Part shown: positions 1,323 to 17,503 of the stretch, piece by piece
Layout of the letters: each line of letters begins with the position of its first letter
Position numbering within the stretch: position 1 is the first letter of the stretch
IMG/VR virus record: IMGVR_UViG_3300033153_001946
Span: 1 to 21,771 of that record
Origin: a virus
Strand: one strand, 5' to 3'
Length of the DNA: 21,771 nucleotides
Notes under the pieces: generated by a model
Told to the model about the DNA's origin: nothing
Seen by the model: the letters and a program-made list of their open reading frames with translations, nothing else
Databases searched by the model: none
Translations under genes and position numbers: made by a program

Positions 1323-2128
1323 TGGGATTAATATTTATAGAAAAGGGTCACAAGTATGAAAGCCAGGATGGTATCATCTGGACATCTGTTACATCTTTTA
1401 TATCTAAGCTTAAATCTTCTTTTGACAAAAAAGGGGTGGCAAAAAAATGCTCAAAAAAAAAAGGTTCTAAATGGTATGGTTTAGATCCTCAGGTGGTAAT
1501 GAACATTTGGGAGGGAGAAACACAAAGAGCTATAGACCTGGGAAACTGGTATCACAATCAAAGAGAAACAGATATTTTAGATTTTAAAACTATTGAAAGA
1601 GAAGGTGTTAACCTACCAATTATTAAACCTATAATTGAAGATGGTATAAAACAAGCTCCTAAACAAAAGCTGATAGATGGTGTATATCCTGAACATTTTG
1701 TTTATTTGAAGTCTGCTGGATTGTGTGGGCAAGCAGACCTTGTAGAAATTGTTAATGGAAAGATAAACATTACAGACTACAAGACCAATAAAGAGATTAA
1801 AGAAAAGAGTTTTGTAAACTGGGAAGGAATATCTTCTAAGATGTATATCCCGGTAAATCATTTAGATGATTGTAATCTAAACCATTATAATTTACAAATG
1901 AGTATATATGCTTATATAATTAAAAAGCATAATCCTAAATTGAAAGTTGGAGCATTAAAAATACAACATGTAAAATTTGAATCAGAAAGTCAGGATGAGT
2001 ATGGATACCCGGTAACAAAGTATGTAAATGGAGATCCTGTGATTAAAGAAATAAAAATGTATAATCTTCCATATTTAAAAGAAGAGGTTACCAACTTAAT
2101 AATGTGGATTAAAGACCAAAGACCATGA
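1322..2128 (+). CDS. PD-(D/E)XK nuclease, RecB/Cas4-like
   Basis: The product has 268 residues and carries the RecB-type exonuclease signature in the right order: G74-x3-H78 in LGNWYHNQ, E124, D139 in GLCGQADLVEI, D152-Y-K154 in ITDYKT (the catalytic D...DxK core), and Q192-x3-Y196 in LQMSIYAYI. All expected metal-binding and catalytic positions are present, so it is probably active on DNA. It sits four genes upstream of the terminase in one overlapping operon, which suggests processing of replication or packaging intermediates. A long A run at 1453-1462 encodes KKK and stays in frame. The next gene overlaps by ATGA. The fold call is strong; the exact substrate is not known. Confidence 0.85.
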   Translation: MGLIFIEKGHKYESQDGIIWTSVTSFISKLKSSFDKKGVAKKCSKKKGSKWYGLDPQVVMNIWEGETQRAIDLGNWYHNQRETDILDFKTIEREGVNLPIIKPIIEDGIKQAPKQKLIDGVYPEHFVYLKSAGLCGQADLVEIVNGKINITDYKTNKEIKEKSFVNWEGISSKMYIPVNHLDDCNLNHYNLQMSIYAYIIKKHNPKLKVGALKIQHVKFESESQDEYGYPVTKYVNGDPVIKEIKMYNLPYLKEEVTNLIMWIKDQRP

Positions 2129-5091: not shown

Positions 5092-7847
5092 TGAGAGTAT
5101 TTAACGCATTACAGATAAAGAAAGGAGCAAAGGCAGAAGGGTATCCTACCTCTTCAAGCCTTACGCAGCCATTGCAGTTTTTGCCAAAGAAAAAGAAAGA
5201 TGATGATTGGTATGCATGGAATATGGATTGGCTTGAACTCCAGGGATTAGAATTTATAAGGTTAAATTCCAGAAGATTGCTAAAAAACTACAAACTTGCA
5301 AAAGGCATTATAGATAAAACAGACTATATTATAGAGGAAGACAATGACATGAGAGATCTTGTAGATATTCTCACAAAAGAAGATGAGTCTGCTTTGGAGC
5401 TAAAGTTTTATCCCATCATACCAAATGTTATTAATGTTCTGTCAGGTGAATTTTCTAAAAGGTTCTCTAAAGTGCAATTCAGAGCTGTTGATGACCTCTC
5501 ATATAATGAGATGCTTGAGCAGAAAAGAGCAATGGTTGAAGAAAACCTTCTTGCTGATGCTGAAAAAAAGCTTATCATGAAAATGATAGAGATGGGAATG
5601 GACCCAAGTAGTGAAGAAGCGCAGCAACAATTAAATCCTGAAGCCATAAAAAGCTTACCTGAAATTGAAGATTTCTTTTCTAAAGACTATAGATCATTAA
5701 CAGAAGAATGGGCTTCACATCAATTAAATGTTGATGATGAAAGATTTAAAATGCAAGAGATTGAAGAAAGAGCTTTCCGTGATATGCTAATTACAGACAG
5801 GGAGTTTTGGCACTTTAGAATGCTTGAAGATGATTATGACCTGGAGCTCTGGAATCCAGTATTAACATTTTACCAGAAATCTCCGGACACAAGATATATA
5901 TCAGACTCAAACTTTGTAGGGAAGCTAGATCTTATGACCTCATCAGATGTCATAGATAGATATGGATATTTAATGAATCAGGATCAGTTAGAATCACTAC
6001 AAAAAATATATCCTGCAAAATCTGCTCTGTATCAAGTTAATGGATACCAAAACGATGGTTCATATTATGATGCTAGTAAATCTCATGAATGGAATACAAA
6101 TATGCCAGGTCTTGCTTACAGAAGATTTGTTAGCAATTGGTCTAATGATCCAGCTAAAGGAGGAGATATTGTCTCTGCAATTTTAAATGAAAGTGATGAT
6201 CTAAAACTTTGGGGAGAAGGAGACTTAATGAGAGTAGCCACATGTTATTGGAAAACTCAAAGAAAAATAGGTCATCTAACAAGAGTGAAAGAAGATGGAG
6301 AAGTAATCCAGGAAATAATAGATGAAAGTTATAGAGTTACAGAAAAACCTATTTATGATACATCTATATTTAGAAATAAAACAAAAGAGAATTTACTTCA
6401 GGGAGAACATATAGATTGGATATGGATAAATGAAGTATGTGGAGGAGTAAAAATTGGGCCAAACCTACCAGCAAACTGGAGGTCTAATATGGGTAATAAT
6501 ATTAATCCTATTTACTTAGGTGTTAATAGAAAGAAGCCAGGTAGGGTGCCGTTTCAATTTAAAGGTTCTAAAACTCTATATGGCTGTAAGCTTCCTGTGG
6601 AAGGAAGAGTGTTTTCTGATAGAAACACAAAGTCAGTTGCTCTTGTAGATTTAATGAAGGCATATCAGGTTGGATATAATTTAGTCAATAATCAGATTGC
6701 AGATATACTTATTGATGAGCTAGGAACAGTAATTATGTTTGACCAAAATGCTTTACCAAGACATTCAATGGGTGAAGATTGGGGGAAAGGAAATTATGCA
6801 AAAGCATATGTGGCAATGAAAGATTTTCAAATGCTTCCTTTAGATACATCTATTACAAACACAGAAAATGCCACTAATTTTAATCATTATCAAGTTTTAA
6901 ACATGGAGCAATCTCAAAGATTGATGTCTAGAATACAGCTTGCTAATTATTTTAAACAGCAAGCATTTGAAGCAATAGGAGTAAACCCACAAAGATTAGG
7001 AGCTCCAATAGGTCAACAAACAGCCACTGGTGTTACTCAGGCTCTTAATCAATCTTATGCACAAACAGAAATATACTTCACTCAGCATTCAGATAATCTA
7101 ATGCCAAGGATACACCAAATGAGAACAGACCTGGCTCAGTTTTATCACAGTACAAACCCCAGTGTAAGATTATCCTACACTACAACAGAAGCAGAAAATG
7201 TTAATTTTATAATTAATGGCACAGATCTTCTTCTTAGGGATTTTAATGTTTTTGCTACAACAAGAACAAATCATAGGTCAATTTTAGATCAGCTTAAACA
7301 GTTGTCAATGACAAACAATACATCCGGAGCATCTATATATGATTTAGGAAATATTATAAAAGCAGATTCTATTGCTGAGGTTACAGATATATTAAAAGAC
7401 GCAGAAACTAAACAGCAAGCTCAGAGACAACAAGAAATGCAACAACAACAACAAATGCAACAAGAGCAAATACAAGCTAAGATGCAGGAGGAGCAAATGA
7501 AATTGCAGTTTGAAGCTCAGGAAAATGATAAAGAAAGACAAAAAGATATAACTGTTGCAGAAATTAGAGCCGCAGGTTATGGAGCAATGCAAGACATAAA
7601 TGAAAATAAACAATCTGACTATATGGATGCAATGAAAGATATCCGTGAAACTACAAAATATAGAGAGCAGATGGATATGAAAAGAGAGCAAAACATTAAT
7701 AAAAATTCTATAGATAAACAAAAGATTGAAATTGAAAGAGAAAGGCTTCAAACACAAAAGGATGTAGCAAATAAAAACCTAGAGATAGCCAGAGAGAATA
7801 AAAATAAATATGACGTAGAAGCAAAAAAGAAGAAAAAAGATAAATGA
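5091..7847 (+). CDS. Portal protein
   Basis: The product has 918 residues. It follows TerL immediately with a one-base overlap, the usual place of the portal, the dodecameric ring through which DNA enters and leaves the head. The size matches the oversized portals of crAss-like phages. The N-terminal two-thirds is a mixed fold containing FYPIIPNVINVLSGEFSKRF and, towards 640, a conserved-looking helical segment (IGQQTATGVTQALNQSYAQ) typical of the portal crown/stem region. From about residue 770 the protein becomes a glutamine-rich coiled coil (runs of Q, then E/K/R/Q heptads) ending in KKKKKDK. Such a barrel or tail would project into the capsid and touch DNA. I assign it from context and length rather than a catalytic motif. 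Confidence 0.85.
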   Translation: MRVFNALQIKKGAKAEGYPTSSSLTQPLQFLPKKKKDDDWYAWNMDWLELQGLEFIRLNSRRLLKNYKLAKGIIDKTDYIIEEDNDMRDLVDILTKEDESALELKFYPIIPNVINVLSGEFSKRFSKVQFRAVDDLSYNEMLEQKRAMVEENLLADAEKKLIMKMIEMGMDPSSEEAQQQLNPEAIKSLPEIEDFFSKDYRSLTEEWASHQLNVDDERFKMQEIEERAFRDMLITDREFWHFRMLEDDYDLELWNPVLTFYQKSPDTRYISDSNFVGKLDLMTSSDVIDRYGYLMNQDQLESLQKIYPAKSALYQVNGYQNDGSYYDASKSHEWNTNMPGLAYRRFVSNWSNDPAKGGDIVSAILNESDDLKLWGEGDLMRVATCYWKTQRKIGHLTRVKEDGEVIQEIIDESYRVTEKPIYDTSIFRNKTKENLLQGEHIDWIWINEVCGGVKIGPNLPANWRSNMGNNINPIYLGVNRKKPGRVPFQFKGSKTLYGCKLPVEGRVFSDRNTKSVALVDLMKAYQVGYNLVNNQIADILIDELGTVIMFDQNALPRHSMGEDWGKGNYAKAYVAMKDFQMLPLDTSITNTENATNFNHYQVLNMEQSQRLMSRIQLANYFKQQAFEAIGVNPQRLGAPIGQQTATGVTQALNQSYAQTEIYFTQHSDNLMPRIHQMRTDLAQFYHSTNPSVRLSYTTTEAENVNFIINGTDLLLRDFNVFATTRTNHRSILDQLKQLSMTNNTSGASIYDLGNIIKADSIAEVTDILKDAETKQQAQRQQEMQQQQQMQQEQIQAKMQEEQMKLQFEAQENDKERQKDITVAEIRAAGYGAMQDINENKQSDYMDAMKDIRETTKYREQMDMKREQNINKNSIDKQKIEIERERLQTQKDVANKNLEIARENKNKYDVEAKKKKKDK

Positions 7848-8197
7848 AGTTAACGGCTACACATATTATATTCATTGTGCAATCAGCTTTTATACTGATA
7901 TTATTCTTAGTAATAGTATTTAGAAAACCGCCATCACCAACGGTAGTGGACTATAATAAGATTAAAGACCAAATAGAAGAATCTATAAATACACTTAAGT
8001 CTGAATTTGATTCCCTGAGTGGAGAAAATACACTCCTTTATAGAAAAATGGATTCTTTGAAATACCAAATGCCGGATAATAAGAAAAGCTTAGATAAGAT
8101 TAACAGAGAAATAAAAAGATTAAATGAAACATATATTATTAGTAATTATAGGGATAGCTCTGATGCTGCCCTTATCCGCAGACTGTCAGGAGGATAA
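7844..8197 (+). CDS. Membrane-anchored coiled-coil protein, i-spanin-like
   Basis: The product has 117 residues. It has a short N-terminus, then one transmembrane segment (about residues 8-26, IIFIVQSAFILILFLVIVF), then a charged coiled coil (about 40-100). This is the build of an inner-membrane spanin (Rz-like): anchor inside, coil in the periplasm. The next gene starts 74 bases inside its end in another frame, as in Rz/Rz1 pairs. The location between portal and capsid is not where lysis genes are normally found, so a structural or envelope-penetration role is also possible. No sequence signature proves either role. Confidence 0.55.
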   Translation: MKLTATHIIFIVQSAFILILFLVIVFRKPPSPTVVDYNKIKDQIEESINTLKSEFDSLSGENTLLYRKMDSLKYQMPDNKKSLDKINREIKRLNETYIISNYRDSSDAALIRRLSGG

Positions 8198-8558
8198 AGT
8201 TCTGATTGAAAGAGATGTGCTTATAAGAATAGCATCTCAACTGGATAGTTTTGAGGTTCTAAAGAAATTAGAGATTGAATATCTTTCTTTTAAAGACTCC
8301 TGTGTTATATTGACAAATACTCAAATGGAATATATAGAAACACAGGACATGTTGATATTTAATAAAAGTAAACAAATAGAAAATCTAAAAACTTCAGAAA
8401 GTGAGTATAAAAATTTAGTTGAGGTAAATGAAGGTCTTGTTAAAACATATCAAAAAAAAGCTAAAATTGGTAGACGTAATACTGTTATTAGTCTTGTAGG
8501 TGGAGGAGTTTTAACACTGGGTTTAACAACAGCTTTAATCATAAGTGTAGTACAATAA
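8124..8558 (+). CDS. Secreted coiled-coil protein with a C-terminal membrane segment
   Basis: The product has 144 residues. The N-terminus is a clear signal peptide (MKHILLVIIGIALMLPLSA), with Cys 21 two residues after the likely cleavage site. The middle is a long coiled coil. The end (about 120-143, VISLVGGGVLTLGLTTALII) is a transmembrane segment. A signal peptide, coiled coil and C-terminal anchor make the layout of a unimolecular spanin, but a true lipobox is missing because Asp precedes the Cys. It overlaps the preceding membrane protein gene by 74 bases. An outer partner of a two-part spanin or an envelope-crossing virion factor are both possible. Confidence 0.6.
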   Translation: MKHILLVIIGIALMLPLSADCQEDKVLIERDVLIRIASQLDSFEVLKKLEIEYLSFKDSCVILTNTQMEYIETQDMLIFNKSKQIENLKTSESEYKNLVEVNEGLVKTYQKKAKIGRRNTVISLVGGGVLTLGLTTALIISVVQ

Positions 8559-14147: not shown

Positions 14148-15656
14148 ATGGCTTATTTTAATCATGCTTTTTGTAAAAGCTTTTTAGTAACTGATGTTGC
14201 TGGCACTCCTGGAATTTTGCCGCAAACATTAATAGCCGGGCAGCTTGGTGCTGCTGATGGCTCTTGGGGAGTTTTAGACCCCACTTCTTTTCCAGCAACT
14301 TTAGCTAAAAATATGTTTTATTTAGCACAGGGTAGCTACAGTCCAAGTGATTCAATTGGTACACACGGAGGATATCAAGAGTCTATTAAGACAAAAGGTA
14401 TCAACCCTAGATATGTAACAAGGCTATGGTCTTCAGTTTGTCAAAATGCTACTGCATCAACGACTGAGATTTGTGTTGCTTCTAATTGTGCACCATGTGG
14501 TGAAAATCTTTTTCTAAGACTTGATGTTAAAGGTTCTCCTGCATTACGCTTTCTGAATCACAATGCTTATGCAATTGGTGATAGCTCAGGTGATGCTGCT
14601 GCAAATGGAGGTCCACTTCCAGGACTTTGTTGTGCAGATACTCAGGAATTTCTTGACCCTGCAATGGCTTTAGCGGCTGCCGCTCAAATGGTATTAGCTG
14701 ATCCAATTATCACCCCATTTGTTCAAGAAGCCGCAGCAGGTGGTATTGTAATTGCAAAAACAAGTGGTGGCCCTGGCGCAGGTGGCCTTGATGCTGCTTC
14801 TGTATTAGGTGCTTTAGTGGGTGGTACAACTTATGTTGCAGATAATGGAACAACAACTGGAACAGCTGTTAATGTTGCTACTACTGGTGGTACAGGAGCT
14901 GGCTTTACATTAGATATTACAATTGTTGCAGGAGTTATTACAGTAGCAACAATTAATTCTCCAGGTTCTGGGTATACTAATGGCGATACAGTTACTATTG
15001 TTGGTGGTGCATCTGATGCAACTCAGGTTATAACTACTGTTGCTGATACAGCTACTTATACAATCACTCAGGTTCTTAATGGAGGATATACTCCTTCTAT
15101 TGATCCTGTAGCTGACGGTGTTACTGCCTGTGTTACTTTTGAAGGTGCATATGTTGATACACAGTTTGGAACTTGTTCATTTGATACCAGAGATCATTAT
15201 GAAATGGAACCTGTGCAAATTACCGGAGCTATTCTTGATGAAACAGGTAATCCATGTAATGATTGTGGTGTTGTTACTTCAGTTCCAGGTCAAATGGCAC
15301 AAACTCATGGAGACACTGTAATAAGACACCTTCTTTTACATGAAAGGTATCTTCAAAATCCATATCATCAAGGTTCTGCTGATTCTGTAAGAATTAGAGA
15401 AATTGAAGGATTTGATCCTCTTAAAGCAGCTGTTGCAGCTAATCCTTTTTATAAAACATATTATCTACAACATAGTATTCCAAGGCTTAATAACCCTACT
15501 GGAACATTTGATAATGATCAATATGTTTATGAATTCTTTGTTCCTTGTGGTTCTGGAGCAGAAGGTGAAATGGAAGGACTGTTTGCACAAATAGCAGCAG
15601 CATGTGTTGCGTATGGCAATCCAATAACATTTGACCAAAATGTAGATCTAATATAA
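14148..15656 (+). CDS. Abundant virion protein with an inserted beta-rich domain
   Basis: The product has 502 residues. The N-terminal part (1-200) begins AYFNHAFCKSFLVTDV and has several Cys residues (SVCQNA, TEICVASNCAPCGENLFLR, GLCCAD). Residues about 205-320 form a Gly/Thr/Val-rich module containing the INSPGSGYTNGDTVTIVGG motif, a type of beta module I know from structural proteins of other phages. The C-terminal part (320-502) resumes the first style with NPCNDCGVVTS and LLLHERYLQNPYH. Its own leader, codon use shifted as in the capsid gene, and a strong terminator directly after it all suggest high expression. I infer a major tail or collar component; no enzymatic motif is seen. Confidence 0.65.
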   Translation: MAYFNHAFCKSFLVTDVAGTPGILPQTLIAGQLGAADGSWGVLDPTSFPATLAKNMFYLAQGSYSPSDSIGTHGGYQESIKTKGINPRYVTRLWSSVCQNATASTTEICVASNCAPCGENLFLRLDVKGSPALRFLNHNAYAIGDSSGDAAANGGPLPGLCCADTQEFLDPAMALAAAAQMVLADPIITPFVQEAAAGGIVIAKTSGGPGAGGLDAASVLGALVGGTTYVADNGTTTGTAVNVATTGGTGAGFTLDITIVAGVITVATINSPGSGYTNGDTVTIVGGASDATQVITTVADTATYTITQVLNGGYTPSIDPVADGVTACVTFEGAYVDTQFGTCSFDTRDHYEMEPVQITGAILDETGNPCNDCGVVTSVPGQMAQTHGDTVIRHLLLHERYLQNPYHQGSADSVRIREIEGFDPLKAAVAANPFYKTYYLQHSIPRLNNPTGTFDNDQYVYEFFVPCGSGAEGEMEGLFAQIAAACVAYGNPITFDQNVDLI

Positions 15657-15708: not shown

Positions 15709-16263
15709 ATGGCAGAAAAGCACATTTTAAGTTTAGAGGTTCCACTTAATACAAATTGTGGGTTAATAACTATAACAGACACAAGTGTATATACTACTAA
15801 CTTGCCTGTTGATTGTCCAGAGTTATTAATAACACCTCCCGGTTACAACTCTCCCATCTTGTTTAAATTACAAGAAGGGTTTTCTATAAATATAACTGCT
15901 TGTGATTTAAACTTGCAGTTAGCTGATTGTGGAAATACTTTAGGAATGATACCAGATGGTGTTTATGTACTTAGGTATAGTGTAGCTCCTAATGATAAAG
16001 TATATGTAGAGTACAATCATATGAGGGTAACCAATATTACAAACTTATATTATCAGGTATTGTGTGAGATAAACATAAATGACTGTGAGCCACATAGCGA
16101 AAGAAAAGATCTAATAAATGAACTTGAGTATATAAAACTTCTTATTGATGCTGCGATATCAAATGTAGAATATTGTAGAAGTCCATCTAAAGGGATGGAT
16201 TTATATAACTATGCTTATAAAAGACTACATAAAATATCCTGCACATATGGAGCTTGCGTATAA
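15709..16263 (+). CDS. Conserved-type virion protein, 184 residues
   Basis: The product begins with beta-rich sequence (ILSLEVPLNTNCGLITITDT, CPELLITPPGYNSPILFKL), passes through IPDGVYVLRYSVAPNDKVYV and EYNHMRVTN, and ends in a helical part (LINELEYIKLLIDAAISNVE) with MDLYNYAYKRLHKI. It has seven Cys residues. I recognise the pattern (SLEVP, PGF/PGY, YSV.PND.V.VEYNH, CDL) as a recurrent protein in the structural blocks of Bacteroidota phages, from memory, with no assigned biochemical role. It starts 10 bases beyond the terminator's T run, with TTAGCT before the ATG and no Shine-Dalgarno sequence. A tail or adhesion-complex component is likely. Confidence 0.65.
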   Translation: MAEKHILSLEVPLNTNCGLITITDTSVYTTNLPVDCPELLITPPGYNSPILFKLQEGFSINITACDLNLQLADCGNTLGMIPDGVYVLRYSVAPNDKVYVEYNHMRVTNITNLYYQVLCEININDCEPHSERKDLINELEYIKLLIDAAISNVEYCRSPSKGMDLYNYAYKRLHKISCTYGACV

Positions 16264-16278: not shown

Positions 16279-16469
16279 ATGGCAAACCATTCATTATGTA
16301 GCTATTGTAAAAAGGCAATAACTTGCGGTTGTCAGAAAGCAAGAAATTCAAAAGGTGAAACAGTTCATAAATCCTGCTTAAGTAATTCTAATGTAAAAAA
16401 AAAGTAGTAAATAAAAAACTGGACACTTTAACACAGGCAATACAAAAAGCAAATAAAAGGATTATATAA
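16279..16469 (+). CDS. Small zinc-binding protein, probably completed by a -1 frameshift
   Basis: Frame 0 runs from ATG 16279 to TAG 16405-16407 (42 residues) with zinc ligands C7, C10, C16, C18, H30 and C33 (CSYCKK, CGCQK, VHKSC). It ends GTA AAA AAA AAG TAG, which contains the dnaX-type slippery heptamer A AAA AAG in the correct phase just before the stop. A -1 slip continues as VVNKKLDTLTQAIQKANKRI plus I and stops at TAA 16467-16469, giving 63 residues. That stop overlaps the next ATG by one base (TAATG), as at 1322 and 5091. The shared A-rich leader supports the start. Alternatives are transcript slippage on the A9 run, a real inactivating indel, or an assembly error. The zinc fold is likely; the role is unknown. 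Confidence 0.65.
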
Positions 16470-17503
16470 TGTTTAGTTTAGAACACAGAATTAATACAGA
16501 GCAAAGATTTGCAAATTTGGTATATAAGGATTTTCAAACAAAAAGATTTGGCCTTACACCTTGTTGCGATGTAGAGATTGATGAAATTAAACTAAAGAAA
16601 TACCTTTGTGACTACCAAGAGCAAAAAGCTTATGATGACAATCTTCTACCTACAGAAGATTTAGATAGAACTGTTTTAGATTGTGATGACTTACCTGTGC
16701 AGCCAATCCCAACACCTCCTGATGATATACCTGTAATAGAACCTTTATTATGTAGAAGTTTGGATTTTGATGGAGTTTCAGCTGAATGGGCAGAATTTAC
16801 TTCTGTAAGCCCAACATTTTATGATTTTATTGATTATAATAAAGGTCATAGTTTGTCATTTTGGTTTCAATATAAACAGCCAGCTCCTCCACAACCAGGT
16901 GTACCACAACAATTGCCATTTTTTTCTAAGTATGACAAACCTACAGGAATAGGACTTCTAACAGGATTTCTTCCGTCTAATAATTATTTATATTATGGAT
17001 TAGTAGGAACAGGAGGGTTCGCAAACTCTTTAATTACTGTTACATCATATACTTTTGTAGTTGGAGGCTGGTATAATATAACATGGACATCAGATGGGGT
17101 TGATGCTTTTAATACACATACATATATAAATGGAGTTTTAGTAACATCTTTAGTTAATTCAAATTCTCTTTTATCTACTATACATACATTGCCCACTCCT
17201 TATCAAATAGCGGCAGTTGTTAGTCCAATAGATAAAAGACAATGGTGGGGAGAGTTTATAGGCCACTCTTTAAGAGGGTGGAGTACAATATTAACCCCAG
17301 CAGAAGTTCTTAATGAATTTAATCTAGGTGTTAGATTACCTACACCTGTTCAAAATGTAAATTTAGAATTAGATATTCAAATGTACAATTCAGTATGGAA
17401 TTCTTTAACATCAAGTTTTGAAATTCCTGAAGCTGTAAAAAGTGTTGTGTTTGATACCTATAATATGGAACAAGTTGATTTACTAAATATATGCCCTGAA
17501 TAA
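16469..17503 (+). CDS. LamG/concanavalin-like domain virion protein
   Basis: The product has 344 residues. Residues 1-65 (NTEQRFANLVYKDFQTKRFG, then Cys residues in LTPCCDVE and KKYLCDYQ) look like a virion-attachment part. A proline-rich linker (VQPIPTPPDDIPVIEP) leads into a LamG/concanavalin-like jelly roll, about 93-285: CRSLDFDGVSAEWAEF, SLSFWFQYK, WYNITWTSDG, HTYINGVLV, and GEFIGHSLRGWSTILTPAEV are the usual strands in order. Such domains bind glycans or proteins, so surface recognition is likely. No catalytic signature is evident. Its start overlaps the -1-frame stop of the preceding small gene. Two bases separate it from the next gene. Confidence 0.8.
   Translation: MFSLEHRINTEQRFANLVYKDFQTKRFGLTPCCDVEIDEIKLKKYLCDYQEQKAYDDNLLPTEDLDRTVLDCDDLPVQPIPTPPDDIPVIEPLLCRSLDFDGVSAEWAEFTSVSPTFYDFIDYNKGHSLSFWFQYKQPAPPQPGVPQQLPFFSKYDKPTGIGLLTGFLPSNNYLYYGLVGTGGFANSLITVTSYTFVVGGWYNITWTSDGVDAFNTHTYINGVLVTSLVNSNSLLSTIHTLPTPYQIAAVVSPIDKRQWWGEFIGHSLRGWSTILTPAEVLNEFNLGVRLPTPVQNVNLELDIQMYNSVWNSLTSSFEIPEAVKSVVFDTYNMEQVDLLNICPE

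What the first reader, a model, noticed from the sequence alone, without database searches (positions are those of the whole stretch)
16390..16471. dnaX-type -1 slippery site in a tiny zinc-protein gene, with the shifted frame ending on the next start codon
Seen: frame 0 ends AAA AAA AAG TAG, containing A AAA AAG in phase. The -1 frame reads 21 further protein-like residues (LDTLTQAIQKANKR) and stops at TAA 16467-16469, overlapping the next ATG as TAATG, the same junction as at 1322 and 5091. Established: A AAA AAG is the E. coli dnaX -1 site. Inference: programmed frameshifting (or slippage on A9) makes 42- and 63-residue forms. No strong downstream stem is visible, which favours slippage or an indel as alternatives.
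Basis: partly seen in the sequence, partly recalled or inferred. Interest (0 to 1): 0.7.

Follow-up and report, generated by a model that had tools for sequence, protein, structure and literature searches.

The report
Frame-slipping zinc gene in a phage
In a small group of uncultured phages distantly related to crAssphage, a tiny zinc-protein gene is broken in two at a run of nine or ten A's, and the evolutionary record shows that the cut-off second half is still kept as protein, so the phage probably makes a short and a long version by slipping on the A's.

Summary
Frame 0 (16279-16407) encodes a 42-aa zinc-finger protein ending GTA AAA AAA AAG TAG. The -1 frame adds 21 codons and stops at TAA 16467-16469, overlapping the next ATG.

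The site itself is unremarkable: A9+ runs and in-frame A AAA AAG motifs occur elsewhere in this AT-rich phage. Homologues decide the matter. About 23 distinct relatives carry zinc part and tail fused in one frame (nearest: ...NDTLTNSINKANLNLSNRR). About 29 are naturally short, with no tail. Only a four-contig clade including the window is split. Its -1 tails are the top three of 1,563 six-frame pieces for a profile built from in-frame tails. They stay similar between members (P about 1.5e-4) although fourfold sites are only about 45% identical (window vs L004). The A-run persists (A9/A9/A9/A10), while nearly every other A7+ run decays.

So recoding at the A-run is well supported as a derived, conserved state. 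Route: RNA polymerase slippage is somewhat favoured (A9-A10, no Shine-Dalgarno-like stimulator, no conserved stem). Ribosomal -1 shifting is not excluded. Nothing was measured. It is a new example of a known kind of recoding, closest in logic to Citrobacter tssM and Shigella spa13.

The parts
16279..16407 (+). Frame-0 ORF: 42-aa zinc-finger protein (CxxC...CGCQK...VHKxC), ends in KKK then TAG
   Evidence: family alignment; structure of homologue L083: two short strands plus a helix (treble-clef-like finger), linker, C-terminal helix, pLDDT 82
16395..16403 (+). A9 run (A9 in L002 and L003, A10 in L004): the slippage site
16398..16404 (+). A AAA AAG heptamer in frame 0
16405..16407 (+). Frame-0 stop TAG, directly after the heptamer; conserved in all four split contigs
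16404..16469 (+). -1-frame tail VVNKKLDTLTQAIQKANKRII plus TAA; homologous to the in-frame C-terminal helix of relatives
16467..16471 (+). TAATG: -1-frame stop overlapping the start of the next gene
   Evidence: among relatives the zinc-gene stop lies -32 to +13 nt from the next ATG (two loci with an unresolved next ORF apart), while the split clade's frame-0 stop is 58-61 nt away
15709..16263 (+). Upstream conserved neighbour, 184 aa (beta-rich N-terminal domain plus helices), used as synteny anchor
16469..17503 (+). Downstream gene, 344 aa, weak Laminin_G_3 (concanavalin-like lectin) match; possibly translationally coupled to the -1 tail

Best explanation
The gene is one ancestral zinc-finger + linker + C-terminal-helix gene whose reading frame was broken in the linker at a lysine-coding A-run in one phage clade. 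The break is kept and read through by slippage. Most messages or ribosomes end at TAG and give the 42-aa finger-only form. A minority gain one A in the mRNA (RNA polymerase slippage on A9/A10, my preferred route, about 55%) or slip -1 on A AAA AAG (about 35%), giving a 63-aa form with the helix. That form ends on TAATG, so the shift may also set how many ribosomes arrive to restart on the lectin-like gene. Shown by sequence comparison: homology of the tail, conservation of the split, conservation of the A-run, derived state. Inferred: the slippage itself, its route, its frequency, the coupling and the role of the two forms. The confidence given is for conserved recoding by either route.
For: In-frame fused relatives, e.g. 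L083 ...NDTLTNSINKANLNLSNRR against the window's -1 ...LDTLTQAIQKANKRII. Of 132 distinct zinc genes only the four clade members are split; two further scans found no other member. The tail profile ranks the -1 tails 1-3 of 1,563, and the fused proteins gain about 16-18 bits over the zinc part alone. -1-frame tail similarity P about 1.5e-4, and the length difference between tails is exactly one codon. The split clade is monophyletic with 100/100 support, in a part of the tree where in-frame tails are common. Fourfold-site identity window-L004 is about 0.45 (0.13-0.59 by gene), so the split is old. Of seven other A7+ runs in window genes only one persists in all members; the A10 at 1453 and the A8 at 8452 are broken even in the near-identical L002, yet the zinc A-run is 9/9/9/10. 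The -1 stop restores the stop-start spacing of the family. The break falls in the linker between finger and helix in the predicted fold. No Shine-Dalgarno-like sequence upstream and no conserved stem downstream, the same reasoning by which C. rodentium tssM was first assigned to polymerase slippage (PMC4256274); A9 is efficient for bacterial RNA polymerase (PMC5009743).
Against: No transcript, peptide or reporter data. Only four contigs, so two or three independent data points. The A-run and the heptamer are individually ordinary in this genome. Third-position excess in the tail is weak (7/7/10 differences by codon position). Tail-less short homologues show that the tail is dispensable in some lineages. 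The host and its polymerase and tRNA-Lys set are unknown.
Confidence: 0.8

Rival explanations
1. The shift is made by the ribosome (-1 programmed frameshifting on A AAA AAG, followed at once by the UAG stop), not by RNA polymerase.
For: The heptamer is in phase and followed by the same stop in all four contigs; A AAA AAG is among the most efficient E. coli motifs when stimulated (PMC4066793).
Against: No upstream Shine-Dalgarno-like sequence, no stem shared by the members (L004 alone has a local hairpin, z -1.5). The run is longer than the heptamer needs in every member.
Confidence: 0.35
2. A plain frameshift mutation: the tail is decaying and the short form alone is used, as in tail-less relatives.
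For: Many relatives are naturally short and often end in lysines; the frame-0 product looks like them.
Against: The tail's -1 frame is open and similar across near-saturated synonymous divergence; the one-codon indel keeps the frame; the tail stop still sits on the next ATG; the A-run is kept while others decay.
Confidence: 0.08
3. The A-run is hypervariable in DNA (phase variation), or miscounted in assembly, so that real genomes are often simply in frame.
For: A9/A10 runs are prone to DNA slippage and to sequencing error (general knowledge); reads were not available.
Against: All four contigs are in the same register despite A9 against A10 and different flanking codons; none is in frame.
Confidence: 0.08
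4. The tail is a separate small gene with its own start, reached by re-initiation after TAG.
For: L004 has a GTG and the window and L003 a CTG early in the -1 frame.
Against: No start codon is shared by the members before the conserved LTQ motif; relatives have tail and finger in one protein.
Confidence: 0.03

Closest known systems
Citrobacter rodentium tssM1 poly-A transcriptional slippage (PMC4256274)
   Same: A gene interrupted shortly after a run of A's; homologues elsewhere encode the full protein; short and long forms from one gene; no Shine-Dalgarno-like or structural stimulator.
   Different: tssM1 has A11 with the stop 28 nt downstream and measured 20-25% shifting; here A9/A10 with the stop immediately after, in a phage, a 42/63-aa protein, nothing measured.
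Shigella spa13 slippage affecting spa32 (PMC5009743)
   Same: Slippage extends a short protein, and the extension's end overlaps the start of the next gene.
   Different: Unrelated proteins; coupling here is only inferred from TAATG.
E. coli dnaX -1 frameshift site
   Same: A AAA AAG heptamer in frame.
   Different: dnaX uses an upstream Shine-Dalgarno sequence and a downstream stem-loop, and the shift makes the shorter product; here there is no conserved stimulator and the shift makes the longer product.
Thermus thermophilus dnaX A9 transcriptional slippage (PMC1088944)
   Same: Run of nine A's inside a coding sequence, two product lengths.
   Different: There the unshifted product is the long one; here it is the short one.
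Phage lambda G/GT tail-chaperone frameshift (PMC5009743)
   Same: Phage -1 shift giving a C-terminally extended minor form.
   Different: Different proteins, different slippery site; no tail tape-measure context here.

Membership tests
Conserved productive reading-frame shift (recoding), route open | Shifted-frame segment encodes a protein segment homologous to relatives' product | tested here: met
Conserved productive reading-frame shift (recoding), route open | Shift site and shifted frame both conserved under selection | tested here: met
   (four contigs only)
Conserved productive reading-frame shift (recoding), route open | Both products detected | not testable with these tools
   needs protein or RNA data
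Bacterial transcriptional slippage | Homopolymer of about 9 or more A/T at the frame junction | tested here: met
   A9/A9/A9/A10
Bacterial transcriptional slippage | mRNA with added or missing A's | not testable with these tools
   no RNA data
dnaX-type -1 ribosomal frameshift | X XXY YYZ heptamer in frame 0 | tested here: met
   16398-16404
dnaX-type -1 ribosomal frameshift | Upstream Shine-Dalgarno-like stimulator | tested here: not met
   none in the 40 nt upstream in window, L003, L004
dnaX-type -1 ribosomal frameshift | Conserved downstream stem-loop or pseudoknot | tested here: not met
   z -1.1 to -1.5, different folds in the members; pseudoknots not modelled
crAss-like phage lineage (genome context) | TerL, portal and major head protein related to crAss-like phages | tested here: inconclusive
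   PHROG head-and-packaging matches; TerL hits about 25% identity to crAss-like and Flavobacterium/Cellulophaga phages: related but distant, no order-level tree made

The most novel reading that the evidence does not exclude
Slippage at one A-run in a virion-gene cluster does two jobs: it fixes the ratio of finger-only to finger-plus-helix zinc protein, and it meters translation of the next, lectin-like gene through TAATG. The clade would thereby make from one gene both length forms that relatives encode as alternative single-frame genes.
Probability: 0.25. Interest if true: 0.65.

Novelty: new member of a known kind. Interest (0 to 1): 0.5.

Why it matters
It is a cleanly polarised case: the in-frame genes, the naturally short genes and the split genes are all visible in one family, so the origin and upkeep of a recoding site can be followed. 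Automatic annotation would call a 42-aa gene and miss the tail. It also gives a compact, testable slippage site in crAss-related phages; two literature searches turned up no report of one.

Tried and rejected
Motif rarity as evidence: rejected, A9+ runs and in-frame AAAAAAG are ordinary here. Conserved stimulatory structure: none. TAG read as an amino acid: frame 0 meets TAA at once in the window and TGA in L004. PHROG and Pfam name for the zinc protein: none. PDB sequence and fold searches gave no confident match, only weak RING/FYVE-type zinc-finger resemblances for the finger and weak FN3/Ig-like ones for the upstream protein. The MAFFT alignment of the A-run region misplaced A9 against A10, so conserved-run statistics from it were not used. 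Annotated phages: no match to the 184-aa neighbour.

Full report
What is there. The window is a fragment of an uncultured phage (IMG/VR record) with a terminase, portal and head protein matching PHROG families; its terminase is about 25% identical to those of crAss-like and Flavobacterium/Cellulophaga phages, so the lineage is a distant one. At 16279-16407 lies a 42-codon gene ending GTA AAA AAA AAG TAG. From 16404 the -1 frame is open for 21 codons and closes with TAA 16467-16469, whose last A starts the next gene.

The motif proves nothing by itself. Synonymous shuffles of the window's genes give about 3.1 A9+ runs; two are present. In-frame AAAAAAG occurs at several further places.

Homologues decide. 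The upstream 184-aa gene served as anchor; together with searches by the zinc family itself this gave 132 distinct zinc genes. By simple rules about 23 carry a C-terminal segment of the form LTxx(I/L)xxA fused in one frame; about 29 are naturally short (38-49 aa, often ending in lysines); most of the rest have other C-terminal extensions. Only four are split: the window and L002, L003, L004, all with A9 or A10, then G TAG, then a -1-frame tail ending on TAATG. Searches aimed at the clade itself found no further member. In the nearest in-frame relative the protein ends ...NDTLTNSINKANLNLSNRR; the window's -1 frame reads ...LDTLTQAIQKANKRII.

Three tests of the tail. (a) A profile from 23 in-frame tails, none from the clade, searched against 1,563 six-frame pieces of three loci puts the three -1 tails first, second and third; joining tail to zinc part raises the family score from 45-50 to 62-67 bits. 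(b) Between L003 and L004 the tail has 24 differences in 60 bases, yet the -1 frame stays open and similar; random placement of the same changes does as well in 1.5 of 10,000 trials. Third-position excess alone is weak. (c) The window's tail differs in length from the others by exactly one codon. Fourfold sites of the 184-aa gene are 45% identical between window and L004, so the split state is not recent.

The A-run is kept. Seven other runs of A7 or more lie in the window's genes. Only one of them keeps its length in all clade members. The A10 at 1453 and the A8 at 8452 are already broken in L002, the nearest relative, whereas the zinc A-run is A9, A9, A9, A10. Lysine codons could have changed to AAG, as they did elsewhere.

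Polarity. In a tree of the 184-aa neighbour the split contigs form one clade (100/100) in the part of the tree where in-frame tails are widespread; its exact sister is not resolved. The split is therefore most simply a derived state. In relatives the zinc-gene stop lies -32 to +13 nt from the next ATG (two loci with an unresolved next ORF apart); in the split clade the frame-0 stop is 58-61 nt away and the -1 stop sits on the ATG.

Anatomy. The model of L083 shows a treble-clef-like finger, a flexible linker and a C-terminal helix; the break lies in the linker, the tail is the helix. The next gene has a weak lectin-type match.

Route. Polymerase slippage on A9 is efficient in bacteria (PMC5009743) and needs no other signal; ribosomal -1 shifting on A AAA AAG is helped by stimulators (PMC4066793). 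No Shine-Dalgarno-like sequence lies upstream and no stem is shared downstream. This was the argument, then confirmed by mass analysis of cDNA, in C. rodentium tssM1 (PMC4256274). I favour polymerase slippage, about 55 to 35, but sequence cannot settle it; both may act.

Verdict. Conserved recoding, about 0.8. Kind: known; instance: new as far as two literature searches reach. Function of the two forms and coupling to the next gene: inference.

Noticed in passing
L027 5549-5600, L029 5549-5600: The zinc gene is missing: the 184-aa homologue is followed directly by the next gene.
   Followed up: no
window 1453-1462: An A10 run inside the in-frame gene 1322-2128, private to the window: L002, L003 and L004 have it broken. 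If the host polymerase slips on A-runs, this gene would lose some product.
   Followed up: partly
window 7844-8558: Two small overlapping genes (7844-8197, 8124-8558), one with an N-terminal membrane-like segment, one with a signal-peptide-like start and C-terminal hydrophobic stretch; reminiscent of overlapping spanin pairs (impression only).
   Followed up: no
L248 (WLWP01000004.1): A 114.7-kb contig carrying this gene set is binned in a Pseudomonadales genome; possibly a phage contig placed in the bin.
   Followed up: no
zinc family, e.g. L031, L040, L050: A large branch of the family has a different conserved C-terminal end (WGxxRYxNLxKFTK) instead of the LTxxIxxA tail.
   Followed up: no
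window 14148-15656 vs L003/L004: The structural protein here is only 65% identical to L003's although most other compared genes are 83-96%: fast evolution or exchange.
   Followed up: no
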